From NCBI GenBank assembly GCA_018806985.1, contig JADANN010000359.1, forward strand, positions 1,302,001 through 1,366,000: DNA of 64,000 bases, in the 5' to 3' direction. This document shows positions 16,400 through 62,668 of the stretch, in pieces. Source of the stretch: Angiostrongylus vasorum. Its lineage: Eukaryota; Nematoda; Chromadorea; Rhabditida; Metastrongylidae. Position 1 is the stretch's first letter, and the number at the start of each line of letters is the position of its first letter. The notes beneath the pieces were generated by a model, which saw only the letters and a list, made by a program, of their open reading frames with translations, did no database searches and had not been told where the DNA came from. The translations under genes were made by a program, and so were the position numbers.

Positions 16400-16760
16400 T
16401 TGATTAGTCATGCCGAGATTAAAGGAAAGTCGGTTTTGAAATATTGTTATTGCTCTTTTCTAGCTGATAATCACACCGACTTCTGAAGGATGAATTGTCC
16501 GGAAAAAAACAAGTCGTTATCACCAGACAATCACTACTATCAACAGCCAGCATCTTGTATAGAAGAGCATTATGGGTCGTTCAAGAGATGCTCCGCTGAG
16601 GAAAACCGAATCGATACGGAGGAGAAGACGCCGCATCGAGAAGAGCAATAACTGTGGACCATCGACTCGAACCATCGACTCTGATGAGGACGAAGACGTC
16701 GAAACGTTAGCCGAACAAAAATTACCTATCAACCTCGTGTAAGCTTATGAAAAAAAGGAA
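16400..16760 (+). mobile_element. Short hammerhead-bearing element
   Basis: Holds the Penelope-type extension (ATGCCGAGATTAAAGGAAAG, 16410-16429) on the left and a hammerhead-like motif at 16676-16713: CGACT, CTGATGA, G, stem II GACG-AAGA-CGTC, GAAA, CGTT, AGCCG. Stem I pairs except for one C-A mismatch. No coding capacity was seen. Confidence 0.55.
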
Positions 16761-18305
16761 TATGTATTGAAAGAAAAAACAGTCAAAGGATGTGATTTCA
16801 AGAAGAGTTTCAAATGTGGTAACAGCTATCAATTCATGACGGCAGAGAGCGGCTAAGCAGTTCAAAGGCGAGAAATTTATTCGAGGGTGACCAGCACGAT
16901 CTGATCATAAACGAACCTTCCAGATGGCACTAAACTGCGATCTGGCTATAAGAGCGAATCACTCTAGATTGTTGATGCAGGATTTTCACATTGAATATAG
17001 AAAGTATAGAAGTAGGATGTATCGGACCTTGGCGTTTGGACTCCGCGGATCAAGTGCTGGATGTCACCAGACGGCGATACGGCGTGGCCGGCATGACTGA
17101 CTATTCGCGTTTCGTGAGAACGTTCCATTCCACCACTGCTCTGGTTTCACGGTTATTCTAAGGAGTAAACCAGAACTAGTAGGAAGTGAAAAAAAGGGTG
17201 AAAAGATAGGAAATAAGGAATAAAAAGGAAGACAACCGCTGGAACGGAGGATCTCAGTCGGCGGTATCACGCCACGTGCCAGCAAACAAAGTACCGCTAC
17301 AGGACGCATTGCCCACCAAATCGGGATCGTACTCGATGGCGGTAATAGACCGATATCCGTCCTCTATAAAAGGGCATTGCCGAGTGAAGTTTCTTATTCG
17401 AACGGTGCTCCATCCTCTGGATTCGACTAGATGCGGCAACCATCACCCACACCGAGACGGCGACCAGCTGTGGACCATCGACTCAGATCAACGCAGCTCT
17501 AAGGAAGCAGAAGGCGACGAAACGTTAGTCGAACAAAAGTTTCATACCATCCTCGTGTCAACTCAATCATGAAAGCCAGTTAGTAGATGTTGAAGGCGTT
17601 ACCAGCCAACATGGTTCCACTTTATAAAATTTCATTCCTTACTACTGAAACTAGTTGGAAACGATAATCAAGAAGATCAAGCATAAGAAAAAGCGGTCAA
17701 TGATACCAAGATTGTGATGAACGAGGTGGACCCAGAAAAAACAAGATGACGACAGCCTCGTAAGAGAGCGGATGCCGATGAGACGGGTGTTCGAGGATTT
17801 TCGTCAAGAGGCATGGAAAAAATAACTCTGTTTCCCTGGTGACAACTGTAAAAAGCCCATGTTATTAAGGATGTCAATCTTTAAAAAGATTCATTAACCA
17901 TGAGCTTCGAATCGAACGTTCTCGAAAGTGAGTTTGCCTCTCAACGATCACATCAGCACAGAGTTTGGAACGCTTTCAATTAGAATGCAAACTATCGGAA
18001 TTGCGAAATTTTCATCAATTAGACTGAGGTCTTATTACCCTATCAAGACAGGAATTTGAGTCTCTTACTGGAAATCCCTATTTCGCATGAATTTAAGTGA
18101 AAATAATAGTTCAGAAGAGTTATACATTCCCTTACCGCAAAAAAGTAAAGCCACTTCTATGGGGCAGCTTAAGCACCAACTCCTCAAACTGTCTAAGTAT
18201 GGGGGAAAAAAACTGAAAAAAAAGTAATGTGCAGGAGGTAAAAGTTACACATCTCAAGATCGACAAGTTATCGGAAGTTTTCAGAAAGTAGTACCCTATA
18301 TGAGG
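16761..18305. other. Mostly unassigned, apart from the decayed hammerhead element
   Basis: Beside the element at 17440-17580, a pair of overlapping frames at 17064-17440 is unrecognised. 17585-18300 is AT-rich with nothing seen. Confidence 0.4.
17440..17580 (+). mobile_element. Decayed relative of the short hammerhead-bearing element
   Basis: 17470-17575 repeats the context of 16650-16760 (CTGTGGACCATCGACTC, then GAAACGTTAGTCGAAC). The first core box is changed to CTAAGGA and stem II is lost, so no ribozyme activity is expected. Confidence 0.45.
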
Positions 18306-19235: not shown

Positions 19236-20475
19236 TTGGATACTTGGACGGTCCGTCTGCGGATCCCTGCACATTTGCCGTTCGTATCATTCCCTAGCAA
19301 TCGTCGTCCATGGTGGTGGTTTTATTCGAGCATGGTGGCGCGTGAGAGTGTCATACCGTAATCTGTAAAATAACTGCAGCTGTGTCTACATCTGATTAAC
19401 TTCTGTTATGAATACGTCTGCCCAACGTGTAGTTGGGCATTCAAGAGGACGCCTGTATTCTTGTGGAGTCCACTGTACAGTTCTTTTCATCCATCTGTCG
19501 TCCGTTCTTCTCATTATGTGACCGGCCTATATGTGTTTCGCTATCCATGTATATTTTTCTGGATCCCGAAGATGTGACAGATTTCGAAGATCAGAGCTTC
19601 GTATTCCAGCTAGATATTGCGAGTGCCGGTTGCATTTCAGAAGATATCGATCAAGCGCTCTGTGAATAGTGCGCAGTATTCTTGACGTGGTTGAAGTATC
19701 AGCCCACGTCTCTGCACCATAACAGAGCGCTGGAATCGGAAAGGCGCGTGTGCGGATTTACGTGTCCCTGAGTTGATCGTTAGCTTCTTTGAGAGGTCCA
19801 AATGCAGCCTAAGCTGCTCTCCTTTTTCTGTCCATTTATTCGTTAATTTTATTCTCTATGTTCACTGATCGTCTAAGCTGTACGTACGAAGTGGTCTCTG
19901 CAATCAGAAAACCACCAGATTCAATTTGTTCTCCTTCGCACCATGGGTTTTTCATGAACTGGATCTTCTTTCGATTTATGCGTAGTCCGACCTTTTCCCG
20001 CCTCGTTAAGCTCATCGATCATAGTCTCTGCTTCACTGGTGCTTCCTGAGAAGGTGACGTTGTTGTCGGCGGAACGAAGGTTTGATAGGAGTTTTCCATC
20101 AATATGTATGCCTTTCTCATCCTAATCAAGTGACTTCGTAATCTACTGCAGTGCGGCACTAAACAGGCTTGGCGATATTGTGTAGCTTTTTCAAACTCTT
20201 TTTCCTATGGGTATGGTAGGAGGTCGATGGGAAAGTTGTATTTCAGCAGTGCAGTTCCGATAACAGTCAAGCGGAGTTTTTATTAGAACGGATCCACTCT
20301 TTGGTCGGCGAGCGCTGACAGCACTGCATCTGTTTCGAAACTGTCAAACCCTTTTCATAGTTAACAAAAGTTGTGACTAAGGGCAAATGAATGCGTCGTT
20401 TTCTTGTTCAGCAATCGCGAGGTTGTTAAATAGCATACATTTACTTCCATAGAAAAAATACAATACAATACAACA

Positions 20476-20512
20476 GTAGCTGACGTTTCGGCAGTATCGC
20501 CTTCGCCTTCTG
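20476..20512 (-). ncRNA. Truncated hammerhead-like motif in the left Penelope terminal repeat
   Basis: On the minus strand the hairpin GGCGATACTGCC is followed by GAAACGTCAGC, as in the right-hand copy at 23401-23437, but the CUGAAGA strand is disrupted, reading CTCAGAAGGC. The inverted terminal repeat seems to stop inside the ribozyme, so this copy is probably not self-cleaving. Confidence 0.5.
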
Positions 20513-23400
20513 AGGTTAATAGAAAGTCGATCCTGGGAACTGTTACAAGATGTGCCAGCAAAATACTTTCAACTTGTGAAGGGAAGCGTTGTCACTAAGA
20601 CAAAAGACTGTCTTAGCTAGACAGCAAATCAACTTTCTCCGCCGCTGTTTTCAACATCGAGTCGTGCCAAAGTTTATAAAAAGAAAGCGACTTCACGAGA
20701 TATGACGGTCTACCAGAGGACAGCCAACAAGTACGAGGCATCGAAATGGAACTACTTCGAGCTGCACTACGAAGCAAGCAGATTGCCAGAATGAAGAAGT
20801 GTGCGACAGAAGGAACAATTTTGTGCTTTGTATTTGGAGGATCGCCTCTGGACGAGAATAGTTGGTGGGTCAATATTGATATGCGATTTTATTAGGTCTA
20901 ATGCCAAAACAACCTTGCAACGAAAATTCGGAAAGCTCTTTTGGGTAATTCACATGTCTCAGCTTCAAGAAAATTCTACCGCAAACAAATTCTTCACGGT
21001 TCTGATAATAGTCAAAATAGGGTTGATAATGCACCAGTGAAAATCTAGGGTCACCGTGATTGGGGGCATAACAATACCTGAGAGTGCGCGTTCGCTATTA
21101 GAATTGGGCCCAAGCTTTGCACCATCACAGTCCCATTTCTAAAACGACCCTGCGTAGGATAGCATGTAACCTTTATGAGCTTCAAGATCGACTCCGCTAT
21201 CAGGCCAAACAAGAAACATCAAATAGAGATAGAAAATCAAGAGGCGGCGTCACTACCACCATCTCCTTTCCCTAGAACGTTTTTAGACAGCAGGACCCCT
21301 AACGACGGAACTGACACAAAATTCCGCATGTTTTCGGACGGCGTTCTCAAGACCCTTAATCATTACCGCGATAGAAAGTTTATCTCTAACCTTACAGCCG
21401 CACAAAAAATGTGGCATGCGAGAAATTAGAGAATTAATAAACTCAAAAACAATAAGATTGTCTGTTAGTGATAAGGGGGAGAGTTCGTAGTTATTCCTCG
21501 CCAGCTGGATGTTGAGATAACAGAGGAACATCTTAGTGATGCTACCCTTCTATCGCCCATCCTCTGAAAAGGAATATAAAAGTCAATACCGAAAGCTAAA
21601 CAATCAATGGGTCAGTGTGGCAAAGGCTGCAGGTTTAAAACCATCGGTTATTTCGCACTTTAAAATCGATACACCAACATGTCCCGTCCTATACCTACTT
21701 ATTAAAACACATAAGTTGGTATCACCTGATGATCTTGCGTCAACCAATCCGTCATCATTTAAGGTTAGACCCATCATCAGCTGTGTAGACGGGCCAACGG
21801 ATAGAATAATCTGGTTTTTAAGCCTAATACTTACCCAGTTGCTTAACCATATTCCAGCTCACCTCACAAACACCCAAATGTTCCTAGAACGTCTACGTAA
21901 CGCGTCTCCTAATAACGCGTACGTGATGGAGTCCTTCGACGTTACTGCGTTGTACACCAACGTATCGAATGACTCCGCAATGCAAGCCATCTTCGAACTT
22001 CTTGTTGAACATGAAGGAAGAATAAATATGCATGGCTTGTCCATCCAGCAGCTAATGGCTCTCCTAAAGGAGTGCCTAAATTGCTCGATTTTCAGATGGT
22101 CTGGGAAATATTTCGCGCAAATAAGGGGGTTGGCTATGGGACAGCGACTGGCACCAAGCCTTGCCATTGTGTTTATGTCTAAGATAGAAGCCCCCTGCTC
22201 TCGATCTCCGGCCACTACTCTACTGCAGATATGTAGATGATTGTTTTGTCATCTTCTCTACGCAGGAGGAGATGGACAAATGCTTTGAATTATTGAACGA
22301 GCAGTCTGAGTACATTAAGTTCACCCGGGAGAAACCGAGAAAAAGACTGGCTTCCGTTTTTTAAACGTCCAAATAAACCTATCAAGTAGCGGTTACCTGA
22401 CAAAGTGGTACCGAAAAGCCAACTAACAAGAACATCCTTGTTCATTTCCTTTCTTCCCACCCTTCACACACAAAGAGGGCGCTTGTGAGAAACATGTTTC
22501 GAACAGCCACCTCTGTGTGCACAACCAGGGAACTAAAGGAAGAATCGCGAGACTTGGCTCGGCAAATAGCCATCTCCAATGGCTACGAAATAGTAACCCC
22601 ACGAGAAAAGGTTAGAAGAACAGTGACGCCCCCAAAACCAATGGTTTGGCCGAAAAAAAGAAAAAGTCCCGTTTATCTTGACCTTCATTAGCGATTAAAT
22701 AAGTGTAGCAGCAAAGCGATGCTTAAGAAAGGCAGATCTAGAGGAATCAGCAGCGATAGTTGAAATACTACCTGGTACTCTACGTCGTCAGTTAGTTCGT
22801 AACCGCCTGTATGACCGTCTGTGTGAAACACCAAACTGCGTAATCTGCCCTTACGGCAGGGGACGGTGATTGCATGAGTTCAGGTACGATATACCTGATC
22901 TCTTGTAATAATTGCGGAGATGAATCTGTTGCCGAAACGGGCAGGCCTTTTGTGTATCCGTATAAAAAGAACACCTAGATGGCAAACGAAAACTAAGACA
23001 AAGTACGCCACTAGGCACGCATAGGATACAAAAGCACAGCAGGGGACGATTATCCTCAATATCCTTGCGCAGGAGACTAGAACACCAGCGCGAAAACTTC
23101 TTGAGGCTTTTTGGATAAATGCCAAAAACCCTACAAATGAATAGCAGGGATGAATGCCCAGAGGTCATACGCGACCTGACCCCGTATGTTCGCATCAATT
23201 TCTGATGTGGGATGGTGCAGTCATCAACCTTATGCGACCATAATCAGCTGTTCTAATCTTCCTCATTGGAAGGCACGTAAAAAAGCGGTGAGTTTTTTCG
23301 AGAAGCTGTTGACCATGTAATTACCATAGAGTTTTTCGTCTTTTTGTAAGTGTCATTGAAGCGTTTGGCCTAATAAATTGTATGTCAGTATACCCTTCCA

Positions 23401-23437
23401 GGCTCTGAAGAAGGCGATACTGCCGAAACGTCAGCTA
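23401..23437 (+). ncRNA. Hammerhead-ribozyme-like motif, right Penelope terminal repeat
   Basis: The order is GGCT, CTGAAGA (matches CUGANGA), one unpaired A, hairpin GGC-GATACT-GCC, GAAA, CGTC, then AGCT. GGCU and AGCU can pair as stem I (one wobble), and cleavage would follow the GUC at 23430-23432. Stem III would be minimal (ACGU), which is known for Penelope-encoded hammerheads that act as dimers. The extra A after the first core box departs from the textbook fold. Confidence 0.68.
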
Positions 23438-23599
23438 CTGTTGTATTGTATTGTGTTTTTCTATGGAAGCAAATGTATGCTGTTTAACAACCTCGCGATT
23501 GCTGAACAAGAAAACGACGCATTCATATTCCAATGCCGAGGTTAATAGAAAGTCGATCCTGGGAACTGTTAAGGGCATATGGTATTCCCAACAAACTTC

Positions 23600-23910
23600 A
23601 CTGACCCTAAATGCATAATCACGGTCGTGCTGAGATATTTGCAAAACTCCGGACCGCTGGTGTCTGCGGTGGGGATCGAACACGCTACTACCCTTTCCGA
23701 GGGCTAACGCGTTCACCACCACGCCATGCCAGTTCTTCGTTTCATCTCAGCCGTATTATTGGCCTGTAGGAGCTCTCAGCAGTCATCATCAACGGGATTG
23801 CTGCAGACACCAGCAGTCCTTAATTTTGCGAATATCTGAGCACCATCATGGTTATATTTTTGCATAATACCTTGCCATTAAAAAAGAATAAGCAGTAAAT
23901 AAAAAGTGAC
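23600..23910. mobile_element. Inverted pair of SINE B sequences inside RTE-B copy 2
   Basis: 23600-23735 is a minus-strand head (GGCGTGGTGGTGAACGCGTT, B-box GTGTTCGATCCCC) with GGAGTTTTGCAAATATCTCA. 23795-23910 is a plus-strand body and tail ending TGCCATTAAAAAAGAATAAG and CAGTAAATAAAAAG. Together they interrupt the RTE-B reading frame. Confidence 0.7.
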
Positions 23911-27167: not shown

Positions 27168-30100
27168 ATCTTAACCTTTTATTTACTGCCTACTCTTTTT
27201 TAATGGCAGGGTATCACCTGTATCACCTGTAGTCCCGTTGGTCGTCGAGTGACTCGAGCGGGCGCCAGTAAGTCTTCCATTTTTTCCCTGTCGCGTGCAA
27301 GAGTAGCCCAGTGGGTTCTGCTCGCTCTAGGGACTCGTCGAGCATAATATCTTTCTTCAAGGCTCTTTGTGAAGAACTCTGACCATCGGGTCGGTGGTCT
27401 TCCTGCAGTATGTTTGACATCCCGAGGAATTCAGTCACTAACCGCTCTTGTCCATCGGTTGTCATTTATAAGCATTACGTGTCCGGCCCACCTTATCTTC
27501 GACTGTTTGGCGTACAGAACGGCATCTTTGATTTTTGATCGTCGACGCAGATCGGAGCTTCGAATCCCTTCCCTTACTTGTGTGGAACGGGATACTCCTA
27601 GCATCGCCCTTTCGACTGAGCGTTCAATAACGCTAAGTGACCTTTCATCCTGCCTACGCAACGACCAAGTTTCTGACGCGTATGTTAGGGCAGGAAGTAC
27701 TGTTGAGTCGAGAAAGGTGGGCACGGAGTCGAGGTGTTCCTTGTTCTCTTCACTACATCCTCGATGCTTTTGAAAGCACCCCAAGCCGCTCGTTTCCTTC
27801 TGCTCAGCTCTGGAGCTAGGTCGTTCATCATATTGATTTCCCGACCTAGATAGATATAACTGGAGCATTCGGAGATATTCGTTCCGTTGAGCATGAATGG
27901 GGCATGAGAAACCAATCCGTTCTTCACGAACATCGTTTTTTGTCAGATTTATTTGAAAACCAATCTTTCCACAGGCTTTATCAAAGTCGGTAAGCATTCG
28001 TTCCGCTTGGCCAATGTTTGGTGTTATAAGGGCGATGTCTTCAGCAAAGCGAAGATGGTGTAACTGCCGACCATCGATTTTCATTCCCATATTATCCCAT
28101 TCCAATGTTCGCATGACGTTCTGGAGGGTGGCGGTAAATAATTTTGGCGAGGTGGTATCGCTTGCCTAACTCCTCTTTTTGACGTCAATGATAATGTCGT
28201 CGTAGAATGGTGATACCTTGGTTGTGAAATTTTTGTACAGCTCACGAAGAATCTTTATGTACTGAGTAGGGATTCCTTGACTATCCAGGGCTTCCAAGAC
28301 TGCTTCTATCTCGACTGAATCAATGGCCTTTTGTAAATCGATGAAGGTGAGACAGAGCGGTCTTTTTGTACTCTCGCGATACTTCAATGAGCCTTGTTAC
28401 CGTGTGGATGTGGTCCATCGTACTGAATCCTTTTCGAAACCCTGCTTGCTCACATGGCTTTCCTTCGTCCAAACCTGTTTAGGATGACTCGAGTGAAAAG
28501 TTTGTAGACGACAAACAGTAAGCAGATTGGACGATAGTTGCCGACATCCTGTAGGTCACCGTTCTTGAACAATAACACGGTCTTGCTGGTTTTCCAGTGG
28601 GTAGGGACCTTGCATTCGGACAGGTAACATGTGAAGAGCCGAGCCAGTGTGTTTACGAGGATTGACAGAATGTTCTTCAGGTGGTCTGGTCTTATCCTGT
28701 CCGGACCAGGAGTTGTTCGATTTTTCACCGACGAAATGGCATGTCGGATTTCGGAAAGGGAGAACCGGTGGTACAACATATCCATCCTCCTTTATTTCAT
28801 ATGACGGAAGGTGGACGTGGCTATCGAAGAGATCCGAGTAGTATTCGTGAATAATTTTCTCCATTGCCTTTCCGGACGCTATAACTGTTCCGTCTGCGCG
28901 CCGGAGTGCAATCATTTTGGTCTTGTAATTGGCGAAGCTCCCGGTGGGCTTTGCGAATGCTTTTCTCCCCTCTGCAGCTTCGACCATTTCTGCTGCTGTT
29001 CTCTCTTTAAGATCTTCTTTTATCGCCTGTCTGCACTGTTTTGCAAGTTCGGACGTTAGTTCGCGGTTGTCTGCAGCTCGTGCGATTCCCGCGCTGCCGT
29101 ATCAGCTCGAGTGTTTCTGGAGACAAACGTCTCTTGGTAACTTTCGAACTCTCAGCTTTCATAGCCCTATTGTGAAGATGTTGAATGAGCCGATCGTATT
29201 CTTCGTCGATGTTATCGAGAACGGCATCTTCCCAACAGCCGGCTAATGAATTGAATAAGTCCCAGTTTGCGGTGGTTCTGGGTCTTCGGTTTTTGAATTT
29301 AGCGGCTTCTTCTCTTTTCCGCGAGAAGTAGAATCTTGCACGAAGGAGACGGTGGTCTGAATCCCGTGTAGAATTTTGGGACAAAGCGACATCGGTTAGG
29401 CAAAACCTTATATTTACTATGACGTGGTCTATTTCGTTATGGTACTCTCCATTGGGAGACTCCCACGTCCAGCGCTTAGGGTTGGGGCTTCTGGAATTGT
29501 GAGTTACCATGGATTGTCTTGGTCGCCATGATAAACTCAGCCATTCACCCTGTTCGTTCCATTTTAATCCGTGGGTCCCAATGTGACGTTCTTCAGACGT
29601 TCTTCTTGGTCCAATCTTGGCGTTGAAATCTCCAATGATGACCTTGAAGAATGTGTGGTCTTCTCTGTAGAACTTCTCCAAGTCCGTATAGAATGCTTCG
29701 ACTTCTTTTTCGTCATAGTTTGATGTCGACGCCTAAACGACGAAGATTGTCAAGGCCGGTATTGATCCACATCTTTTTAATCGTAAACGTCCGATTCGGG
29801 TTGTATGTTGTTCGAATGAATCGATGTTCATGGACAAACTCGTGTTGACCAGAACGCCGACGCTGCCAACTCCTTTACTGCCGCATGTTCCAAGGAACAG
29901 TTCTTCTCCGGTGTCATAGACGGAGTTGAAAGGCTGGCGTCTTCTCGTCTCGGCCAGGCCGATGACGTCGTACTTTATCCTTCTTGCTTGCATGAGCAAG
30001 TCTTCTATCGAGGACTCGGATGCAAGTGTACGTGCATTGTAGGTACAGATCGTCACCATAGTTCTTCGAAATTCAGGCAGCTTCCATTGACCGTGAGATT

Positions 30101-30605
30101 TTAGCAGCCTCTCCGTACTCGTCCTACCCAACGCTGCAAAATTGGGGGGCTCTTTCGGGGTCAGGGGAATGAGGCCCGTTTTTTTTTACTGTGTTTAGCA
30201 TTTTTTGATACCCACGTATAGCTTGCTGGGCTCTGAACGTGGGTTGCTGGGTATACTCACGGGTAGCTTGCCAGGCTCTCCCAGAGTGGACATGGAGCCT
30301 ATTTGTTGGAGGCGACTCCTAACCGCCTCCCATATACTTCCCTGTCACTTGATTGCAGGCTTTTGGCCGAATTGACTCGTAGAATACAATCTGCCTAAAC
30401 TAGAACGCACCCACACACGCGTGCATGAATACACCCCATAAATGTGCCAAATCGGCGCAGAAGAAACAGCTCTCAGGGAAGCTCCGCCACCTGGGGACGC
30501 GCCACGTAGCCTCGCGACTAACCGGCTCGAGATCCCTCATATGAGGGAGATCCGTGGATGGCACTGAATGGCAGGGTATCTTGCGAAATACAACGTTAAT
30601 AAATA
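27168..30605 (-). mobile_element. RTE-A copy 1, near full-length RTE-type retrotransposon
   Basis: Minus-strand frames follow in order. AP endonuclease at 29007-30131 has [45 protein letters not shown] and DSDHRLLRA, with one in-frame TAG at about 29731. Reverse transcriptase spans 28166-28987 (TTPGPDRIRPDHLKN, FIDLQKAIDSVE). The segment at 27900-28114 carries LRFAEDIALITPN, where the usual second catalytic pair DD is ED. A C-terminal IRWAGHVM region ends near 27480. Frame breaks near 29050 and elsewhere disable it. A 12-bp direct repeat AATAAGTAAATA flanks it at 27156-27167 and 30606-30617. Copy 2 lies at 34690-37935 in the same orientation. Confidence 0.85.
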
Positions 30606-33339: not shown

Positions 33340-34690
33340 ATTCTCACATCAAATTTGTTTTGGAGAACATCGAGCTTTCATTTTCACCACACAGCCACTA
33401 ATACCATATTTCCAGTGCATCATACAGTCCATCTTACGAGCACCCAGATGTTCCTGGATCACCTACGTAACGCGCGTCTTAACAGCGTTTACGTAATGCA
33501 GTCCTTCGACGTCACAGCCCTTTATGCAAGCGTGTCGAATGACTTCGTTATGCAATCCATTCTCGAACTCTCTACACAACATGCAGAAGCGATATGCATG
33601 TACGGCTTCACGAATCAGCAGTTGATGACACTCATAAAGGAGTACCTAAATTGCTCAATCCTTTAGATGGTACGGAAAGTACTACGCGCAAATAAGATGG
33701 TTGGCAATGGAAAAGCGACCGGAAGCAAGCTTTGCCATCGCATTTATGTCTAAGGTGGAAGCACCAGTAGCCGTCCTCCAGTCATTACTTTACTGTATGT
33801 ACACAGGTGATTTGTCATTCGCTAATAACAAGAGGAAGTGGACAAATGTTTCGAGTTATTAAATGAACAGTCGAAGTACATCAAATTTATCCGAGAGAAA
33901 CCAGAAGAAGACTGGCTTTCCATTTGTGAACGTTATAATTGACCTGTCCGAAAACGGCTACATTACGAAATGTTACCGAAAACCAAGTAGTAAAAGCATA
34001 CTGGTTCATCACCTCTCTCCTCACCCTTCACACACAAAAAAGGGCTCATGTAAGAAACATGTTTCGAACAGCCATTGGCGTGTGCATAGGAAGAGAGCAG
34101 AAGGAGGAGTCGCGAAAAACCTGACAATTAGCCATTTCCAGTGGAGACGAAACTTCAGCACCTCGGTTTAAGTCTATAGGAAAATTTAAGTTTCCCATCG
34201 ACAACTCTAACGATAATAAGTTTTCGTTTATCCCACCTTTCGTTTCAAGAGAAATAGTTGGAGAAAACTTTTGCTTAGGAAAGGCCGATCTAGAGAATTC
34301 GGTAACGGTAATCGAAACATCACCGATTACTCTAAGACGCCAGTTAGTTCACAACCGCCTTTATGACCGTCTATGTGCAACGAAAAATTGCATAATTTGG
34401 CCATGACTGCATAAGTTGAGATACGGTTTATCCGGAAACGGATAGATCTCTCTGCGACCGTATAAAAAATCATCTAATCGCTAAACTCAAAGCTAAAGCA
34501 AATAGGCCACTATGCGCGCATAGGACATAGAGACATGACGGGGAAGATTTTAAAGCATTGGTTGCCATCCTCGCACAGAAGTCGAAAACAACAGCGCTCA
34601 AAACTATCCAGCCATTGTGATAAATTCCAGCAATTTGAAAATTAACCGCAGGAAGCAATACCTCATAATTACGCGTGATCTCACACACCA
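33340..34690 (+). mobile_element. Penelope-like element copy 2, 5'-truncated
   Basis: Begins within the reverse transcriptase (STQMFLDHLRNA, then SFDVTALYASVSNDFVMQS at 33490-33560), continues through HVRNMFRTAIG (34040-34075) and RRQLVHNRLYDRLCATKNC (34340-34390), and ends in the C-terminal region matching 23010-23190 of the complete copy. Several frameshifts and stops. Its 3' end is replaced by RTE-A copy 2. Confidence 0.72.
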
Positions 34691-37600
34691 TTTCACCTGT
34701 ATCACCTGTAGTCCCGTTGACCGTCGAGTGACCTGAACTGGTGCCGGTAACTCCTCCAATTTTCCCTGTCGCGTGCAAGAGTAGCCCAATTGGTTCTGCT
34801 CGCTCCAAGGACTCGTTGAACATCATATATTTCTTCCAGGCTTTTCGTGAAGAACTATGATCACTGGGTCTGTGGTCTTTTTGAAGTGCGTTTGACATCC
34901 CGAGGAGTCCAGTCACTAATGGCTCTTGTCCATCAGTTGTCCTTCATACGCATTACGTGTCCGGCCCATCTTATCTTCGACTGTTTGGCATACAGAACGG
35001 CATCTTTGATTTTTGGTCGTCTACGCCGATCGGAGCTTCGAATCTCTTCCCTTACTTGCGTGACACGGGATACTCCTAGCATCGTCCTTTCGACTATGCG
35101 TTCGATAACGCTGAGTGATCTTTCATCCTGCTTACGCAGCGACCAGGCTTCTGACGCATACGTTAGGGCAAGAAGCACCGTTCAGGCGAAAAGGTGGGCA
35201 CAGAGTCGGGTGTTCTTTGTTCCCTTCACTACATCCCCGATGCTCTTGAAAGCTCCCAAAGGCGCTCGTTTCCCTTGTGCTCAGCTCTGGAGCTAAATCG
35301 TTCAACATGCTGATTTCCCGACCTAGATAGATATAACTGGAGCATTCGGAGATATTCATTCCGTTGAGCGTGAACGAGGCATACGAAACCAATCAGTTCC
35401 TCATGAGCATAGTTTTTGCTAGATCTAGTCGAAGACCCATCTTTCCACAGATTTTATCCAAAGTTGGAAAGCATTCGTTCCACTTTTGCTGACGTTTGTT
35501 GTTTGAGAGCGGTGTCATCAGAAAAGCGAAGATGATGTAACTGCCGACCATCGATTTTCACTCCCATGTTATCCCATTCCAATGTTCGCGTGACGTTTTC
35601 AAAGGTGGCGGTAAATAATTTTGGCGAGGTGGTATCGCTTGCCTAACTCCTCTTTTGACGTCAATGATAATGTCGTCGTAGAATGGTGATACCTTGGTTG
35701 TGAAATTTTTGTACAGCTCACGAAGAATCTTTATATACTGAGTAGGGACTCCTGACTATTAAGAGCATCCATGACTGCTTCTATCTCAGTTGAGTCAAAA
35801 GCCTTCTTCAAATCAATGAGACTGCGACAGAGCGGTATTATGTACTCTCGTGATACTTCAGTGAGTCTCATTATAGTGTGAATGTGGCCCATCGTACTAT
35901 ATCCCTTTCGAAACCCTGCTTGCTCACATGACTTCCTTCGTCCGGTGTTCTGTCAATCCTGTTTAGGATGACTCGAGTGAAAAGTTTGTAGACGACAGAC
36001 AGCAAGCAGATTGGGCGATAGTGCCGATATCGTGTAGGCTACCCTTCTTGAACAATAACACGGTCTTGCTGGTCTGCCACTGAGTAGGGACCCTTGCATT
36101 CAAACAGGTAACGTGTGAACAGCCGAGCCAGTGTGTTTATGAGGACTGGCGGAAGGTTCTTGAGGTGTTCAGATCACATCCAGTCCGGATCTGGTGTTGT
36201 TCGATTCTTCACCCTACGAAATAGCATGGCGGATTTCGGAAGCGAGAATCGGCGGGTACAACATATCCGTCCTACTTTATTTCATACGAGGGAAAGGAGG
36301 ACGTGGCTGTTGAAGTGATCCGAGTAGTATTCGTGAATGATTTCCTCCATTGCCTTTCTGGACGCTGTCAATGTTCCGTCTGAGCGCTGGAGTGCAATCA
36401 TCTTGGTTTTGTAATTGGCGAAGCTTCGGTGGGTTTTGCGACTGCTTTTCCCAGCCTCTGCAGCTTCAACCGTACTGCTGCTCCTCTGTCCTTTAAGATC
36501 TTCTTTTATCGCCTGCCTGCATTGTTTTGCAAGATCAGACGTCAGTTCACGGTTGCCTGCAGCTCGTGCGATTCCACGCTGGCGTATTAACCAGAGTGTT
36601 TCTAGAGACAAACGACTCTTGGTAACTTTCGATCTCTCAGCTTTCATAGCGCTAAAATGAAGATGTTGAATGAGCCGTATCGTATTCCTTGTCGATGTTA
36701 TCAACAACGGCATCTCCTCAACAGGCGACAAAGAAATTGAATAAGTCCCACTTTGTGGTAGTTCTGGGTTCTTCGGTTTCTGAATTTAGCAGCTTTTTTC
36801 TCCTTTCCGCGAGAAATGCAATCTCGCAGGAAGAAGGCGGTGGTCTGATCCCGTGTAGAATTTTGGGACAACAGCGACACCGAATACGCAAAACCTTCCA
36901 TTTACTATGATGTGGTCTATTTCGTTACGGTACTCTCCATTGCGAGACCCCGAAGTCCAGCGTTGAGGGTGGGGCTTCTAGAATTGCGAGTTACCTGGAT
37001 GGTCTTGGGCGTATGATAAACTCAGATAGCCGCTCACCCATGTTCGTTCCATTCTAAACCATGGGTCCCAATCTAACGTTCTTCAGACGTTCTTCTTGGT
37101 CCAATCCTAGCTCTAAAATCTCCAGTTATGACCTTTGAACAATATGCAGTCTTCTCTGTAGAACTTCTTCATGTGCATATAGATTGCTTCGACTTCTTCT
37201 TCGTCGTAGTTAGTAGTTGGTGCGTGAACGACGAAGATTGCCAAAGCCGCTATTGATCCACATCTCTTTAATCTTAAACTGAAACGTCCGATTCGGGTTC
37301 CCAATGAATCGATGTTCATGGCAACACTCGTGTTGACGAGAGCCCTGACGCCACCGTCTTCTCTACTGTGGCATGCTCCGAAGAACAGTTCTTCTCCGAT
37401 ATCATAGACGGCGTTGAATGGGTGGCGTCGCCTCGTATCGTCTAGGCCTATGATATCGTACCTTATCCTTCTTGCTTGCATGAGCAAATCTTCGATCTCG
37501 GTCTCGGATGCAAGTGTACGTGCATTGTAGGTACAGATCGTCATCTCAGTTCGTTGTGATTTAGGCAGCCTCTCCGTACTCGTCCTACCCAACGCTGCCG

Positions 37601-52192: not shown

Positions 52193-55100
52193 TCATGTAT
52201 GTATTGAAGACGACATCTCAAGTTTAAAGGAGTCGTTGAAAAGTGAAGGACTTTGCCGGAAATCACAAGTATTGCGACCAACGGGTGAGGATATAGCATC
52301 ACCGTTCTCCTGTGCGATCTCTGCACGAGGCTCTTGGTCGTAGCCACGGCTGGATTCCGTGTTAGAACCAAGGTCGTGATCCGCTTCCACGCCTGATAGT
52401 TCTTCTTCACCACAACCTTCGACTAATGGTTTGTAAGAACTCCCGTATGCCTCTAGAGGACAGCGTGTATTGAGCAATTCCATGCCTTCCTCACAGAAAT
52501 TCTCCGTCAAGTCATCACTTTGCAAATTGCGCAGCAGTTGTTTAATATTATTTAGACGTAGTGGAGTTGGTGCAAGACGTTCTGCACTAGTACTCGGTGA
52601 TTTCGACCAACTATGCAAAGACCCCATAGAGTGGTCCAAGTGATATGGAGAACTGTTTGACATCATAACTGAATCAGCATAGACGTGCTCGTGCATACGC
52701 TCCGAACATGGAACACTCATATCAGTGCGACTATAAGGAACAGTATGATGAGACTCGAAAAGTACTTGGCTTCCAGCATTCTGGCTTCCGCTTTCTCGTG
52801 ACCTCACACTTGCTGAATCTCTTTCATCTGCCTCGGTAATGCGATTAAGAGCACCATATACGTGCTTGTTACTCTTTCGCCGACGCTTCTCATCTCTCCA
52901 ACTAGGCATATTGCCGAACTTAATTGAACGTTGAGTCTGATTTGGAAGACTTTCATCCAACTTTTCATCAGAAGAGGTGGGAATCTCCACAACTGATCGA
53001 CGGCGATAGCAAAAGAGAAGACAGACAAGGAGAAGAAGCAGAATAACACCAACAATCAGCAAAATACCTAGAAGTGTGGCAGTGTCAAGAGTTTTCCCTT
53101 CGGCTATCGATGGCACAATGACAATATTACGAGAGAGACCATGGTTTTTTGACAAAGTGGTGTTTGATCGAGTATCACACGCTACGCCTATCCATCCAGC
53201 GAAGCAGACGCAGACAGAGGTAGTGGTACAGTCGCCATGACCTGAACATTGCAAGGCATGATTGTTGGAAGGACAGTTGACTGGTGTTGAGACAGAGGAC
53301 ACTTCGACGCATGAACCAGCGACACAAACTCGACTAGGCCCACATGTAGATCCGTCTTGCACAAGACCTACACTGTCATCCGCGACTGATTTACACTGCA
53401 CCTGCTTCTCATCCTGTTGAAATTGAAAGGTAAAGGCTCTCAGAGAAGACTTCGATGGTGTAATCGAGCCGTCTTGGCAATGTAGCGTCCCACATCTAAT
53501 GTGCTCAGGTTGACAGGAGCGATAGGACCCACTACTATCACTCGAACCACAATTTGCGTACTCGTGACCACGAGTATTCTGCTTGAAACATTCTTCATCC
53601 GCGACTCGGGCACCTGTACATCTATGTATTAATGGCACTAGAACAAAAAGTAAAACAATATGATGGTATGACATTTGCCGCTTTTACCTACAATTTTTTT
53701 ACACGACACGTCATCACATCTACTGTGCGGATCCAGCACTTCTTGCATCCGATTCGTTTTCTACGAATCCATAAATGGTCTTTGGACATTTCGCGTGTTC
53801 TTAAGGTGCTGCTCGAGGAGTTCGGCTTCTTTATTTTTGCCGTAGAATGATGGTCGAGTTCACGTTTCTTCCACGCTTTGAGATAGCCGTGCGAAAGCAT
53901 CCCCATGTGGACTAAAGGAGAGCTTTGGGGCGAACGTCGAACTACCTACCGCCTTTGCTTCCTCTTCTACGGCAGCAGTAACCAATGCGCTATCCCCGCT
54001 TACTAATATTCGCCAACTACAAGAACGGAATTGTTTTCAGGGTAAGGACTTCTCGCGATATATTCGAATTATAGACATTCAAATAGATGATGGATGCATG
54101 ACAGAAAACTCCATCAAATACAACAAATAAAGAACACAGATAGCATACGTCTGTTCATTTACAAAAACGACAAATCATTGATCCAGAATTCCACTGGGCA
54201 CGATCACTATGCGAGAAGATCTCAACAAAAAACCTACCTTCTCCCCAGATTTCCTGGCATTGATGATAAAGATCGCTGCAATTGCCTCGCCAGCATTGCC
54301 CGTCTCGACCGCAGGCTGTGCCGTCGACCAAGTGTCCATCTGCAGGACAGTTTCCCGACCTTCCATCGCAAACTTCAGCGACATCACATGGCGAGTGAGC
54401 ACTTCGACACACTTCACCGGCTTTTCGTAACTAAAAACTATATTGCATAAGGATTAAGCTTTACAAACAATCTTAAGTAGAACTAGTTCCTGTTTTAAGC
54501 ATTTTGGAACCCGAAACCTCCTACCGTTATAACAATTCCTGCCACGCATTTATTTCCATTCATTCGTGAGGATGCTTTTTTATAACTACAGAACTGCAGA
54601 ACTTGAGTAGTTGGGACTAACAAATTTGAGACTTTCGTCCTAAAAGAGGTCTTTGCAGAACTTGAAACGTGAACCTGACACTTTGGCAATCAATATAGGA
54701 GCACACATCCTTCTTCCGAAATATTACGTTCTTTCTAAAATTTGGCCCTTTTTCAACGCAAGCGAGGTAACCGCACAAACTGACGATACATTCAAGGACA
54801 CCATCTTTATACTATACGAACGAAATTTTTTCCTTTCGTTGAACCGCTTTGCATTTGGTGATACGACTCTCGACGAGAAACAAAAAAGGGTTTAAGGCTT
54901 TCAAAAGAAGTTTACCATGCTAATACAATAGAACAACTATTCTACTGCAAAGATCTGTAGACTCCAATGGTTTTCATTTATACTGGCAAAGATCATTACG
55001 AAATAAGATAAAATTGCTTAGTTGAGAACTGAATACCGGCCAAGTATGAGTTGAAATCAATTCGTATCGCTAAGAACATGTCAAAGAACCAGTAAAACAA

Positions 55101-57819
55101 ACACAACGTAAAAATTTTTTCCCATTCTTGCTTTATCTAAGGATAAAAACTAGTTGGTCCATTGCCAGATCTGCCGGAAAAACCATACCTCGCATCTGTA
55201 GCAACACTGATGATGACCTGCACACTGAGCATGAGCTCGTAGCGTGCATGTAAGCGGATCACAGCACGGATCAGTGCAAGTCTCACGTGTTCCACAATCA
55301 CACTCTTCTGATCCGTCCACCACACCATTTCCACATTCGCGAAGTTGAGAAGGCTAAACCAATGAAACATACGACCAGATGAACAGATTCCTTCAGAATT
55401 CAAACTATCAAGAACACTTTTCTTGCATCAACTCAATGATCTTCAGTGAAAAATATGCTCATCCACTGTAAACTATGCCTATTCATTATGGATAAGAGTA
55501 GGCCGTCATCAATTGCTTATCATTAAAATCGTGTTGTGGATAAGTCTCCTTTATTAACTTTTTTGTTCGTGTTTTTGAGGAATGGACGACGCCCAACTTT
55601 TCGATGCACTCGCTGTGACACCTATAGGTGTCGTACCGGCCATTCTAGAATGGCTTTTGTAGCCCCGCCCTTTTTATGTGATTTCCGTTTTAGAAATCGG
55701 ATTATCTCTTCGTCCTGGAAAAAATATCTGCGATTCTCCTTTCCTATCCTATTTAACGCTCCACGTTCCTTTACACTACTCCCATGTTTTTGTGCATATA
55801 CAACACTAGTGCATGAAGAAAAAAAACTCGTCCATGCAGACGTATTCCTATAGGGAGATTACGATGTTTTCCTTTTAGTTTTGATATCGTCTCATTCCAA
55901 ACAATACTCAACAGCTATCTTCTTTTTATTTCATATGAGCCGTCACCACGTCTATCGTGTGGATCTCAGCACTTTCTCACATTCGATTCGTTTCCTCGCA
56001 CCCACTGTCCACGAAGATCTTCCAACTTTTACGTATGGCTCCGGTTGCTGCTTGAAAATTTCCACTTCATCTTGAATACCGTAGAATGCTGGTCGAGCGA
56101 TTCTCCTTGGTGTCCTGAGATAGCCGGGCAGGAGCGTTCCCAATTCATTGCAGAGAGTGATTTTTCCCAGACAAGTCCACCACAAATTTCCCGACCCCGG
56201 AGGAAATCATAGGTTTGGTTGGCCCGAAGTGGAATCGAACTAGCAACATGCTCGTGATAACGGACATCACTATCACTGTGCTATCCACCCCCCTAAACGA
56301 TTGAAAATTGCAAAACAACGAACTGCTTATCAAAAATGATGATGCACACTGCATGTGATGTTACTTCTTCGACAACTCTCCACAATTTTTTCGATTATTA
56401 GTGTGCATCAGGAGTTGGAACATCAACAAATCTATAGAAAAACCTCTGCATCACCGTTCTATGGGTGTCAATGTTTCTTTGTATCCCCTCGTTCCGTAGC
56501 ATTACCATGATTCATCGTAGAGATTGTAAAGACTTCTCCACTTAGTCGAACGGTGGTGCCCGCACTTCGCCTTTGAGTATCAGTAGTTGGCAAAAAGAAA
56601 CCACTGTTTAGAAATGGTGAGCATTGCTACAGGTTTCGCCTGACATGCTGAGCGCCTATTATAGAATAAAGAATATCCTAAATTTGCCTATGTTGGATAT
56701 ATATTGTATGTTATGCATAATATTATACGCATATTAGAGATATCAAACCAACTCTTAGTACATTAAATGCTTCCGAGAACAACTTCCAACACAACGTTAT
56801 GGTTGTATTAAAAGACTTCACAGGTGTCTATAAGATTAAACTCTGTTGAACTATGAATTCGTCGTTTTCTCTCTCAGCAATCGCGAGGTTGTTAAACAGC
56901 ATACGTTTACTTCCATATATAACTCACATACAACACAATCGTAGCTGACGTTTCGACTCGGCAGAATCGCCTTCTTCAGAGCCGTTTTTTTCCACCTGTC
57001 TTCCATCGAGGAAGAACAGCCGCTCAGAGTCGCACATGGTTGACGACTCCTCCGTTGAGTCATATTGACGAATGCATGGTCTGCAAACATCTGGCTACTC
57101 TGGAAGAAGTCTTCTCGACTTCTCTTCCTTATTTCATTCTGGCGAAAACCTCTCCCCAAGTGTCGATTCCCATTGCACAGGTCGAGGTGTTTCTGCGCCT
57201 CTCCAAAAGGCCACACTCCCCACGCTGCACACTCTTCGGCAGCAATGGTCCCTCACCGAAGAAAGATACTCATCCAAAACAAGACTTTTTGGTGAATTAT
57301 TAAATGAGGGGATTATTAATGGGATATTCTCCCATCAACCACGCGCGCTACAACATCTGCATTGAATGAGCTACCGAATGACTACAACCAGAAAGAAAAT
57401 GACACCTTTAGGTGCCAGTCTTCGTGGGAATGTAAATAATGTCAGATTTACATCAGAAGAAAGTGCAACGTACTTGAAACGGTTTGTTCAATAAGCAGTG
57501 AACATGTCCGGATTGCCATACACCGTGCATTCGAGCAATTGAACATTTCGAAAATTGCCAAGCAAATGCGACATCGGGTTTTCTAAAAGAACATTAACAC
57601 GTCATAATGATATATTTATGAAAACAATGGCAAATACTATAGCAGTGGAGATCCAGAAGGCAAAAACCTAACCCCTGGTTTATCGTTCATGATACACTGC
57701 TGGTTCACTGCATCCGTGTCACATTGACAGGAAGGCGTATCGTGCTCGAGGCCAAGTAAATGTCCTAAGGAATGTGCCAACATCTGACCGGACCACTGTG
57801 CACCGAACATGTCCACACT
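52193..57819 (-). CDS. unc-71: Transmembrane ADAM protein, UNC-71/ADM-1-like (5 exons, 5' part missing)
   Basis: Exons in transcript order: 57668-57819, 57474-57582, 55189-55353, 54238-54430 and 52193-53613 (stop at 52193-52195); all junction phases agree. They encode the end of the metalloprotease domain, then WQFSKCS and HCLLNKPF, a disintegrin domain ([32 protein letters not shown]), the cysteine-rich region ([20 protein letters not shown]), an EGF-like module ([20 protein letters not shown]), a hydrophobic transmembrane helix ([20 protein letters not shown]) and a cytoplasmic tail of about 240 residues, rich in Ser and charged residues. The expected HExxHxxGxxHD zinc site reads [12 protein letters not shown], so the catalytic Glu is Ser and proteolysis is not expected. 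C. elegans UNC-71/ADM-1, which guides motor axons and sex myoblasts, is a known ADAM with a degenerate active site; orthology is inferred from that and the architecture. Prodomain and first metalloprotease exons were not found up to 64000. An AATAAA on this strand at 51572-51577 could be the poly(A) signal. Confidence 0.85.
53690..54005 (-). mobile_element. SINE D copy in the last ADAM intron
   Basis: Tail region TCTACTGTGCGGATCCAGCA at left and head GGGGATAGCGCATTGGTTAC (minus strand) at right; the middle is diverged. Confidence 0.7.
55925..56292 (-). mobile_element. SINE D copy in an ADAM intron
   Basis: Full length: GGGTGGATAGCACAGTGATA with B box CTAGTTCGATTCCAC (minus strand). Confidence 0.78.
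56846..56990 (-). mobile_element. Solo Penelope terminal repeat with hammerhead-like motif
   Basis: 56846-56985 matches the terminal repeat at 20386-20511, including the segment AACAACCTCGCGATTGCTGA on the minus strand. The hammerhead-like motif at 56941-56985 reads GGCT, CTGAAGA, hairpin GGCGATTCTGCC, then an extra GAGTC before GAAACGTC, so stem II is altered. No reverse transcriptase is recognised beside it. It lies in an intron of the ADAM gene. Confidence 0.6.
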
Positions 57820-57859
57820 CTGAAAAAAAAGTAGACTACAACCCTGAATATGTGTTTAA

Positions 57860-58116
57860 ATTGTTGAGCTTTACATGAGGTTAATAAAGATATTTATTCG
57901 ACTAACGTTTCGACGTTTTCGTCTTCATCGGAGCCGATAATACGAGTCGATAGTCCACAGCTGTACTTGTTCTACTTGATTCGGATCATCGGCTCTGATG
58001 AAGACGAAAACGTCGAAATGTTAGCCGAATAAACAGCTTCACCAACTTCGTGTAAGCTCAACAATTTAAACATATGTTCATTTGTCATACCGAGGTTAAA
58101 GGAAAGTTGCTTTTTG
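57860..58116. mobile_element. Palindromic unit with two outward-facing hammerhead-like motifs
   Basis: Plus-strand motif at 57990-58026: CGGCT, CTGATGA, A, stem II GACG-AAAA-CGTC, GAAA, TGTT, AGCCG; stem I pairs at all five positions. Minus-strand motif at 57898-57939 is the same with CCGATGA instead of CTGATGA. The flanks are also inverted: TGTTGAGCTTTACATGAGG at 57862-57880 mirrors the region ending TGTAAGCTCAACA at 58043-58064. A Penelope-like extension (CATACCGAGGTTAAAGGAAA, 58076-58095) follows. It lies upstream of the last recognised ADAM exon. Confidence 0.62.
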
Positions 58117-58154
58117 AATTAGAATCCTGAACAGTTCGAACAGTTAAAACCTAA

Positions 58155-58871: not shown

Positions 58872-59180
58872 TTAAGTTCTTCATTTACTGCCTACTACAA
58901 TTTTTCACCGCAGGGTATTATATGGAATTCAACCATAATGATACTGAGATATTTGCAAAAGTCCGGACCGCAGATGTCTGCGGTGGAGACCAATCGTGTT
59001 TTTACCCTTTCCAGGGGGCTAAAATAGAAAACAATCTGAAAGAAAGGCGAAACGAAGGATCCGTATGGTGTGGTGGTGAGCGTTAGCTCCCGGAAAGGGT
59101 AATAGCGGGTTCCGTCCCCAGCGCAGACACCTGCGGTCCGGAGTTTTGCAAATATCTCAGCATCACTGTGGTTGAAACAC
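58872..59180. mobile_element. Head-to-head SINE B pair
   Basis: 58872-59030 is a minus-strand copy with tail ACTGCCTACTACAATTTTTC (plus letters). 59062-59180 is a plus-strand copy with head ATGGTGTGGTGGTGAGCGTT and B-box region GGGTTCCGTCCCC. Confidence 0.7.
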
Positions 59181-60429
59181 CATAGTATCAAGCTGTACGA
59201 AAGCTCACTTGTTCATTTGCTTCTGTGTTCAAAGTAAAATACGCGTCAGCAGCAGAAAATCTCGATTCAAATATTTTTATTCCAACTAATGGGATCTAAT
59301 ACGAACCGAGAAACGTTGGTTTAATGTTGGAAACAGCCAATATTTTCGCATCAAATGTATTGTATACAATACATCACAGGCGCTACGTGTTAAACGAAAG
59401 TAAAAAACTTTTTCAATTGAACTAATGACCATTAGAGTCCAAAGAGATTTGCCAGTAAAATGCAGGTCACCTTATTCTACCAAGGTGAAAATCTCATTGA
59501 TCGTACGGAAGCCACAAATTTATAACTGAAATAACATTCTTCCAACCAGGTTTACTCTTCAACAAATCAGTGTCATATCATTCTCTGCAAACAATTTCAT
59601 CGTCGCTATAAAACAGAATCTAGTTCACGACTACGCCCAATTACCGTAATCCTGAGAACAAAGTGTAATCTAAAGGTCTGAAAAGAATAAAGACATGAAA
59701 CTTTAACACCCAAGTCGTAATTTCCCATGTGTTTCCGACAGAATACCAGTAGTTATTCCTCATTAGTTTAAGAACTAAAACAGCAAAATTCTCTAAGGGT
59801 GGAATGTTTTTCGAGAAGCACGACAATCACCGCAGTTAATCCGAGTCTCTACTGGCAACCCCTCCTCATTCTCAACTCTAATCTATCGTCATTGAATCTA
59901 ATTTAAGCGTATAATTTCTGTGACGGACGAATTGACAGAAATAACATATGGCAGTCGACCACTCAATCCATGGGCTACAAATAAAATCCTTCGAAATGAA
60001 AAAAAAGATTAAGGAGGACAACTCCGCTCCAAACAAATATACAGATGAGTTCGCAAGAAAATTTTCAGCCAGCAGAAGAATCATCTGTTGCGAATTATAT
60101 AATCGATCAAACCACAGAGTTACAACATTCAAGACTTTCGGAACCGGATATGGTGATAGGTGGGATAATGAGGTATGGCGACTAAAAGTATTATTGAATG
60201 TGTGGATAGAAGCATTTTTTTACTGGGTATGACCCAATTCCTTCCACATTCTACCACAACAGACAGTGGTACTTAAATTCAGAAAAGTCTAACAGAATAC
60301 CGGCTTATAAATAGATCCAGATAAAGACAAATCACAAAAACTACTACGTCTACCAAACAATCCATTTAGCACCACATCTGGTTCCTAAAGTCTTGGACGT
60401 TGTAAATTAGAAACTCACAATTTCTTGGA
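59181..60429. other. No gene recognised
   Basis: AT-rich. A plus-strand frame at 59948-60232, with a GTATGG donor-like site after GYGDRWDNE, could be an exon of unknown family. The missing ADAM 5' exons were searched for here on the minus strand without success. Confidence 0.35.
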
Positions 60430-60640
60430 TTGTTATGCTTACATGAGCTTGTTATATAAAATTTATTCGGCTAACGTTTCGATGCCTTCGTCTTCATCAG
60501 AACCGATTATCGAGAAGACGAACAACTGTGGACCATCGAGTCGGATCATTGGCTCTGATGAAGACAAAGACGTAGAAACGTTACCCAAATAAAACTTATA
60601 TAACAACCTCGTGTAAGCTTAATAATCCAAGATATTGAAT
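60430..60640. mobile_element. Second palindromic unit with paired hammerhead-like motifs
   Basis: Minus-strand motif at 60468-60506: CGGTT, CTGATGA, A, a four-base-pair stem II with one mismatch, GAAA, CGTT, AGCCG. Plus-strand motif at 60550-60588: GGCT, CTGATGA, then a decayed stem II, GAAA, CGTT, ACCC. Flanks TTACATGAGCTTGTTATAT (60439) and ATATAACAACCTCGTGTAAG (60598) are inverted copies. Same layout as 57860-58116. Confidence 0.58.
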
Positions 60641-62394: not shown

Positions 62395-62668
62395 CAGGAA
62401 TGTTTGTAGTCACAATGATGCTGAGATATTTACAAAACTCCAGACCGCTAGCAGATAGAAAACTAGCTGAGAGAAAGCCGAAACGAAGGACTCGCATGGT
62501 GTGGTGGTGAACGTGTTAGCCCCTAGAAAAGGTAACGGCGTGTTCGATCTCCATCACAGACACCTGCAGTCCGGAGTTTTGCAAATATCTAAGCACCACT
62601 GTGGTTGCATCACATACACTAACTTGCCGTGAAAAATTGTAGCACGCAGTAAATAAAAAGTTAACGTA
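62395..62668. mobile_element. SINE B fragment and full SINE B
   Basis: 62395-62455 is a minus-strand body piece. 62490-62668 is a plus-strand copy with head ATGGTGTGGTGGTGAACGTG, B box GTGTTCGATCTCC and tail CGCAGTAAATAAAAAG. Confidence 0.7.

What the first reader, a model, noticed from the sequence alone, without database searches (positions are those of the whole stretch)
57860..58116. Palindromic element with a hammerhead-like ribozyme in each arm
The plus-strand motif at 57990-58026 has CUGAUGA, a GACG/CGUC stem II, GAAA and a five-pair stem I (CGGCU with AGCCG). The opposite arm holds an outward-facing partner on the minus strand, with one core change. Arms and flanks are inverted repeats and a Penelope-like extension follows, yet no reverse transcriptase is attached. 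Hammerheads in Penelope-like elements and in non-autonomous retrozymes are known; a unit made mainly of two opposed ribozymes would be a compact non-autonomous parasite. Stem III is only ACGU, so activity may need a dimer.
Basis: partly seen in the sequence, partly recalled or inferred. Interest (0 to 1): 0.8.

Follow-up and report, generated by a model that had tools for sequence, protein, structure and literature searches.

The report
Fold-back copy of ribozyme-bearing Penelope retroelement
The palindrome with a hammerhead-like ribozyme in each arm is most likely an old head-to-head insertion of a small, gene-less relative of Penelope retrotransposons in a roundworm genome; the palindrome is ordinary Penelope behaviour, and the interesting part is the gene-less, retrozyme-like repeat unit it was copied from.

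Summary

It is not an element built from two opposed ribozymes. It is one copy of a high-copy, ORF-less unit (tail, TATA-like box, hammerhead; 383-384 nt in one tandem locus) in a strongylid nematode, inserted with PLE hallmarks: head-to-head inverted pLTR, tail on exactly one arm (37 of 45 palindromes), TSD-like repeats ≥8 nt (8 of 37, against 2.9% of mismatched pairs). Arm starts vary, own arms are on average more alike than arms of different copies, and there are no arm-specific groups; this favours repeated fold-back formation. The RT-bearing PLE at 20390-23571 in the same window has the same ends; a palindrome of that PLE type (L100) has 98%-complementary arms.

In a palindrome transcript the hairpin (−136 kcal/mol, against −84 with the hammerhead enforced) should bury the ribozyme, and no second sense ribozyme lies in cis; the palindrome is probably an inactive by-product. 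The unit links PLEs to metazoan retrozymes. Catalysis was not tested; no Rfam hammerhead model matched.

The parts
57845..58080 (.). Palindrome P1 (inverted pLTR arms, head-to-head)
   Evidence: Inverted repeats I2 and I3
57990..58027 (+). Minimal type I hammerhead motif, right arm; predicted cleavage after 58022 (inferred from the motif)
   Evidence: Sequence; pattern match with 1 mismatch
57899..57936 (-). Hammerhead motif, left arm, core CCGATGA (U4 to C), ACGU kept
58087..58121 (+). PLE tail, present on the right arm only
   Evidence: Pattern match; tail scoring (WIN57: R only); conserved extent
60418..60637 (.). Second palindrome P2, CTGATGA intact in both arms (minus motif 60468-60505, plus motif 60550-60587); no tail detected on either arm
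16410..16760 (+). Direct (non-palindromic) copy of the same ORF-less unit: tail 16410, hammerhead 16676-16713
17269..17528 (+). Second, more decayed direct copy of the unit (hammerhead pattern at 17499 with 5 mismatches)
   Evidence: Profile match E 4.7e-26
20390..23571 (+). PLE copy with RT, bounded by inverted pLTR 20390-20504 and direct pLTR with tail 23538-23571; flanks AAGGGCAAATG / AAGGGCATATG (10 of 11) as likely TSD, seen by eye
21536..22240 (+). Open RT fragment of that PLE
   Evidence: Pfam RVT_1 E 4.5e-4, below the curated cut-off; 150 scored matches of 8684 candidates in the genome
23400..23437 (+). Hammerhead motif of the PLE (CTGAAGA A GGC GATACT GCC GAAA CGTC AGC)

Best explanation
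P1 is an old insertion of a non-autonomous, ORF-less unit related to Penelope-like elements (PLEs). The unit carries a tail, a TATA-like box and a minimal type I hammerhead, and occurs in direct copies, in tandem (383-384 nt per unit in one locus) and as head-to-head fold-backs. Shown: hallmarks, copy number, architectures, and the same ends on an RT-bearing PLE in the same window. Inferred: PLE protein supplies RT and endonuclease in trans; reverse transcription starts in the tail; after partial copying, self-priming or fold-back synthesis makes the inverted arm, so the palindrome forms during insertion. Inferred: in tandem transcripts two hammerheads can pair through the self-complementary ACGU and cleave as a dimer; in a palindrome the ribozyme is buried in the hairpin and has no sense partner in cis, so P1 itself is probably inactive.
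For: Tail on exactly one arm in 37 of 45 palindromes (3 both, 5 none; 22.5 expected if independent). Exact flank repeats of 8 nt or more in 8 of 37 against 2.9% of mismatched pairs; one of the 8 (L034) is the unit's own sequence, leaving 7 of 37, P 7e-5. Arm starts vary: long arm 225 +/- 9.5, short arm 247 +/- 9.6 in model positions, 37 of 45 used. Own arms 72.8% identical against 67.4% between copies, 0 of 5000 permutations; no long-arm or short-arm groups, 207 of 1000 permutations. Adjacent hammerheads within 500 bp in the listed first 100: outward 7 of 7 in the PLE-type list, 2 of 2 in the unit's list. RT-bearing PLE with the same inverted ends in the window. L100, a young PLE-type palindrome with 98% complementary arms; tail on one arm and AACCATTG on both flanks by eye. 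L099, tandem ORF-less units with an inverted arm bearing the tail and no tail after the last unit. No PLE protein hit in 31 of 31 unit loci L069-L099. Published PLE traits match: head-to-head inverted pLTR, tail on one inverted pLTR, 8-10 bp TSD, self-priming (PMC3846280, passages). Folding energies.
Against: P1 has no exact TSD (only AACCCTGAA / AATCCTGAA by eye). The own-arm excess does not control for subfamilies; the own partner is the closest arm in only 11 of 45 and ranks 23rd or worse in 10. Arm starts cluster (near 225 and 247), some copies share coordinates (e.g. L031 and L049), and decay adds noise, so a partly shared junction is not excluded. Within 1000 and 3500 bp the PLE-type list also has inward (1, 2) and same-strand (1, 4) neighbours beside 10 and 15 outward. 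Two of the 70 loci L029-L098 have RT fragments at 48-55% identity beside unit sequence (L054, L067); in L054 the unit splits the RT, read as a nested insertion; L067 is undecided. The control (22 of 22) includes the queries' own loci. Flanks of at most 1.5 kb were searched for PLE protein. No Rfam hammerhead hit. Most palindromes were chosen by a palindromic query.
Confidence: 0.88

Rival explanations
1. One reading: a compact non-autonomous parasite whose working form is the palindrome, with one ribozyme per strand, amplified as such.
For: Outward pairs are consistent in orientation and similar in spacing; arm starts cluster around the same two places; CTGATGA is intact in both arms of P2.
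Against: Arm starts vary and there are no arm-specific groups; own arms are on average more alike than arms of different copies; the hairpin beats the enforced hammerhead by about 52 kcal/mol; 19 of 30 loci found by the hammerhead alone have no head-to-head partner in the flanks held; the RT-bearing PLE type makes the same form.
Confidence: 0.05
2. A palindromic MITE or fold-back DNA transposon that merely captured PLE sequence.
For: Long inverted repeats, short size, high copy number.
Against: Tail on one arm only in 37 of 45; direct and tandem copies; truncation at variable points upstream of the hammerhead; same ends on an RT-bearing PLE.
Confidence: 0.02
3. The unit is the pLTR of an undetected autonomous PLE family of its own rather than a stably ORF-less lineage; the copies are truncated or internally deleted relics.
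For: The unit has pLTR features; PLE-type hammerheads and RTs in this genome are many and diverged; two of 70 loci have diverged RT fragments beside unit sequence.
Against: No PLE protein hit in 31 of 31 loci L069-L099; 0 of 100 listed unit hammerheads within 4 kb of 80 of the 150 listed RT places, though the PLE-type hammerheads themselves score only 4 of 100 in that test; L099 has tail-to-hammerhead tandem units with no room for an RT.
Confidence: 0.25

Closest known systems
Penelope-like elements with inverted pLTRs (Adineta vaga Pen2 and others; PMC3846280, passages read)
   Different: No RT or endonuclease found in the unit; P1 has nothing but the two arms and the tail
Minimal hammerheads of PLEs that cleave as dimers (Lunse, Weinberg, Breaker 2017: title and citation seen only, not held; Cervera and De la Pena 2014: citation seen only, not held; reviewed in PMC7761336 and PMC6155905, passages read)
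   Same: Type I layout, helix III lacking or minimal, seat in the pLTR
   Different: Activity not shown here; P1 arms carry changes (U4 to C; ACGU to AUGU)
Metazoan retrozymes (PMC7229834, passages read)
   Same: Small ORF-less tandem units with type I hammerheads, coexisting with PLEs (published circRNAs about 170-400 nt)
   Different: Here the hammerhead is the minimal PLE type and the unit carries PLE tail and inverted pLTR; circular RNA not tested

Membership tests
Penelope-like element (autonomous) | RT (with GIY-YIG endonuclease) encoded | tested here: not met
   No hit of 12 PLE open-frame queries in 31 of 31 unit loci (control 22 of 22 includes the queries' own loci); GIY-YIG was not searched with its own model
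PLE-mobilised non-autonomous element | Head-to-head inverted pLTR | tested here: met
   11 of 30 loci found by hammerhead alone; outward 9 of 9 adjacent pairs within 500 bp in two listed sets of 100
PLE-mobilised non-autonomous element | Tail on one end only | tested here: met
   37 of 45 palindromes, P 7e-6; one of the 37 (L060) would count as both at one more mismatch
PLE-mobilised non-autonomous element | Short variable TSD | tested here: met
   8 of 37 with exact repeat of 8 nt or more against 2.9%, 7 of 37 without L034; P1 itself inconclusive
PLE-mobilised non-autonomous element | Mobilised by PLE protein | not testable with these tools
   Needs a transposition assay. Indirect: similarity to the window's PLE pLTR exceeds 300 shuffles for the 16.4-kb tail (31 against 23 at most) and P1's right arm (30 against 26) but not for the 16.7-kb downstream part (24 against 26)
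Hammerhead ribozyme, type I | Core CUGANGA / GAAA with stems I and II | tested here: met
   Plus arm of P1, majority of 118 motifs, 30 loci of which were found by the exact motif; minus arm of P1 fails at U4
Hammerhead ribozyme, type I | Match to the Rfam hammerhead models | tested here: not met
Hammerhead ribozyme, type I | Covariation of stems | tested here: inconclusive
   Across 122 distinct strings 29 two-sided standard cells against 17.5 shuffled (2 of 2000), 23 of them at one stem II pair; within the unit 16 against 5.8, but slid registers reach 8-27
Hammerhead ribozyme, type I | Self-cleavage | not testable with these tools
   Needs an in vitro assay
Metazoan retrozyme | Tandem ORF-less units with hammerheads | tested here: met
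   L099: 2.4 units of 383-384 nt; one locus examined
Metazoan retrozyme | Canonical type I hammerhead with loop-loop contacts | tested here: inconclusive
   No monomer stem III is possible in the family motif; loop contacts were not tested
Metazoan retrozyme | Circular RNA | not testable with these tools
   No RNA data
Fold-back or MITE DNA transposon | Matching terminal inverted repeats at both ends | tested here: not met
   Tail on one arm only in 37 of 45

The most novel reading that the evidence does not exclude
The unit behind P1 is a retrozyme-like RNA parasite that is copied by PLE machinery: ORF-less tandem units with minimal dimer-type hammerheads that carry PLE insertion marks. That would be the missing direct link for the published suggestion that PLEs mobilise metazoan retrozymes, and the fold-back copies would be natural records of PLE self-priming, possibly also sources of long hairpin RNA.
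Probability: 0.5. Interest if true: 0.6.

Novelty: new member of a known kind. Interest (0 to 1): 0.4.

Why it matters
PLE transposition is still poorly understood, and published work only suggests that PLEs move metazoan retrozymes (PMC7229834, PMC8969392, passages). A genome with 5016 matches to a PLE-type hammerhead pattern, an ORF-less tandem unit and many fold-back insertions with tails and TSD-like repeats lets both questions be tested: where reverse transcription starts and turns back, and whether hammerhead units travel on PLE enzymes.

Tried and rejected
Rfam search for hammerheads at gathering and at relaxed thresholds: no hammerhead family; the best hit in the area was a miRNA model (MIR1861) on the P2 hairpin, below its gathering score, taken as a hairpin match. 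Master-palindrome amplification: tested by arm-specific groups and spread of arm starts, not supported. Covariation as proof of a ribozyme: modest only; one search used a hand-picked part of the strings (34) and is superseded, which uses the distinct strings that searches listed (50 and 72, 122 in union; one search listed 100 of 5016 matches, all 91). The fold of a direct copy was not decisive.

Rows dropped: L029 as a duplicate of the window copy (46 to 45 pairs); 8 of 45 palindromes with an arm start below 190; 8 of 45 without exactly one tail. The opposite-strand entry that one search counts as tail-to-tail (L086) lies inside the unit itself; one search has one possible inward neighbour (L093, 5 mismatches).

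Full report
Host and setting. The window lies in a 280-Mb genome (G000:C359:1302001-1366000). An ORF at 52193-53674 (ADAM cysteine-rich and EGF domains) has its best relatives in strongylid nematodes: 81% over 96% to Ancylostoma ceylanicum, 90% over 85% to Parelaphostrongylus tenuis, 94% over 56% to Angiostrongylus costaricensis. A metastrongyloid host is inferred.

The observation. P1 spans 57845-58080. The plus hammerhead motif is at 57990-58027, its minus-strand partner at 57899-57936. The minus core has U4 to C. The plus motif reads GAAAUGUU; the family form GAAACGUU is in the minus arm. A 30-nt motif finds both arms of P1, both arms of P2 and the 16.7-kb copy with 0-2 mismatches, while 20 mononucleotide-shuffled windows give none at 5 or fewer. 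The full motif has 310 exact genome matches and none for the reversed control; a looser PLE-type pattern with CTGAAGA has 5016 against 7. No Rfam hammerhead model matches, so the assignment rests on core, stems and PLE context.

What the repeat is. Alignment of 40 fetched copies shows conserved arms that end in unique flanks, usually with a longer end on one side. The first 30 of the 310 exact-hammerhead loci (L069-L098) show the source unit: tail, TATA-like box, hammerhead, then the next tail. Of the 30, 11 have a full upstream unit and 19 are truncated; 11 have a head-to-head inverted partner. The one entry that one search lists as tail-to-tail (L086) lies within the unit itself; one search shows one possible inward neighbour in L093. 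L099 has 2.4 direct units of 383-384 nt with no room for an RT, plus an inverted arm with the tail and no tail after the last unit. None of the 31 loci L069-L099 is hit by 12 PLE open-frame queries; the control hit 22 of 22 loci but includes the queries' own. Among the 70 loci L029-L098, two (L054, L067) have diverged RT fragments beside unit sequence; in L054 the unit lies between two RT pieces, as a nested insertion would, and L067 is undecided.

PLE hallmarks. In PMC3846280 (passages) PLEs have a head-to-head inverted pLTR, a tail optionally on one of the inverted pLTRs, TSDs of 8-10 bp, and palindromic junctions read as self-priming. Here the tail is on exactly one arm in 37 of 45 palindromes, on both in 3, on none in 5 (P 7e-6). 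Flanks of the 37 share exact direct repeats of 8 nt or more in 8 cases against 2.9% of mismatched pairs (P 8e-6); one of these, L034, is the unit's own sequence, leaving 7 (P 7e-5). The PLE at 20390-23571 shows the same plan: inverted pLTR on the left, direct pLTR with tail on the right, and flanks that agree at 10 of 11 positions. Of 20 RT loci, each has a PLE-type hammerhead match, and 7 have an outward pair around the RT, two of these with a weaker partner (6 and 8 mismatches of the pattern). In the first-100 lists, adjacent hammerheads within 500 bp are outward in 7 of 7 (PLE type) and 2 of 2 (unit type) cases; within 3500 bp the PLE list has 15 outward, 2 inward, 4 same-strand. L100 is a young palindrome of the PLE type itself: 123-nt arms 98% complementary, with the tail on the left arm only and AACCATTG on both flanks by eye.

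Recurrent formation. The long arm starts at model position 225 +/- 9.5 and the short arm at 247 +/- 9.6 in 37 of 45 palindromes. Own arms are more alike (72.8%) than arms of different copies (67.4%; 0 of 5000 permutations), though the own partner is the closest arm in only 11 of 45 and subfamilies were not controlled for. Long arms do not form a group of their own (207 of 1000). Repeated formation is favoured; a preferred turning place is also visible, and some copies share coordinates.

Ribozyme. The family's stem III, ACGU, has no loop and cannot close in a monomer; a dimer in trans or in tandem is needed (inference, and the title of Lunse et al. 2017, not held). For P1 the hairpin has a predicted energy of -136.1 kcal/mol against -84.2 with the plus hammerhead enforced, and a palindrome transcript holds one sense and one antisense copy, so no dimer in cis. 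Within the unit, two-sided standard changes exceed shuffles (16 against 5.8) but not slid registers (8-27). Across families, 29 against 17.5 (2 of 2000), 23 of them at the second stem II pair, mostly G-C in PLE types and A-U in the unit. This is support, not proof. A PLE study found hammerhead cleavage not needed for insertion in vitro (PMC11167929, passages).

Novelty. Minimal hammerheads in PLEs, inverted pLTRs and tails are known (passages only), and dimer cleavage by a cited title and review passages. The searches listed no paper that by title or abstract start describes an ORF-less hammerhead PLE unit with tails and inverted pLTRs; I opened passages of only some of the hits, and key papers are not held. 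The palindrome is a new copy of a known kind; the ORF-less unit is the part worth following.

Noticed in passing
58928-59176; similar pieces at 62411-62500 and, by eye, about 23618-23850: Another inverted-repeat family (88-nt arms, 83% complementary) beside P1, with further pieces in the window; no link to the hammerhead unit was seen.
   Followed up: no
60475-60580 (-): Rfam miRNA model MIR1861 matches the P2 hairpin at E 2.6e-5 (37.2 bits, gathering 88); probably a match to a long hairpin, but such hairpins could make small RNAs.
   Followed up: partly
56950-56985 (-): Another PLE-type hammerhead motif with a small insertion before GAAACGTCAG.
   Followed up: no
27431-30131 and 34470-37592: Two clusters of minus-strand ORFs that look LINE-like (RTE-like) by eye; a Pfam scan of one of them (29736-30131) found no family.
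   Followed up: no
L069-L098, model about 226-260: Eight of 12 truncated units without any inverted arm begin just upstream of the hammerhead (my reading), as if reverse transcription tends to stop there.
   Followed up: partly
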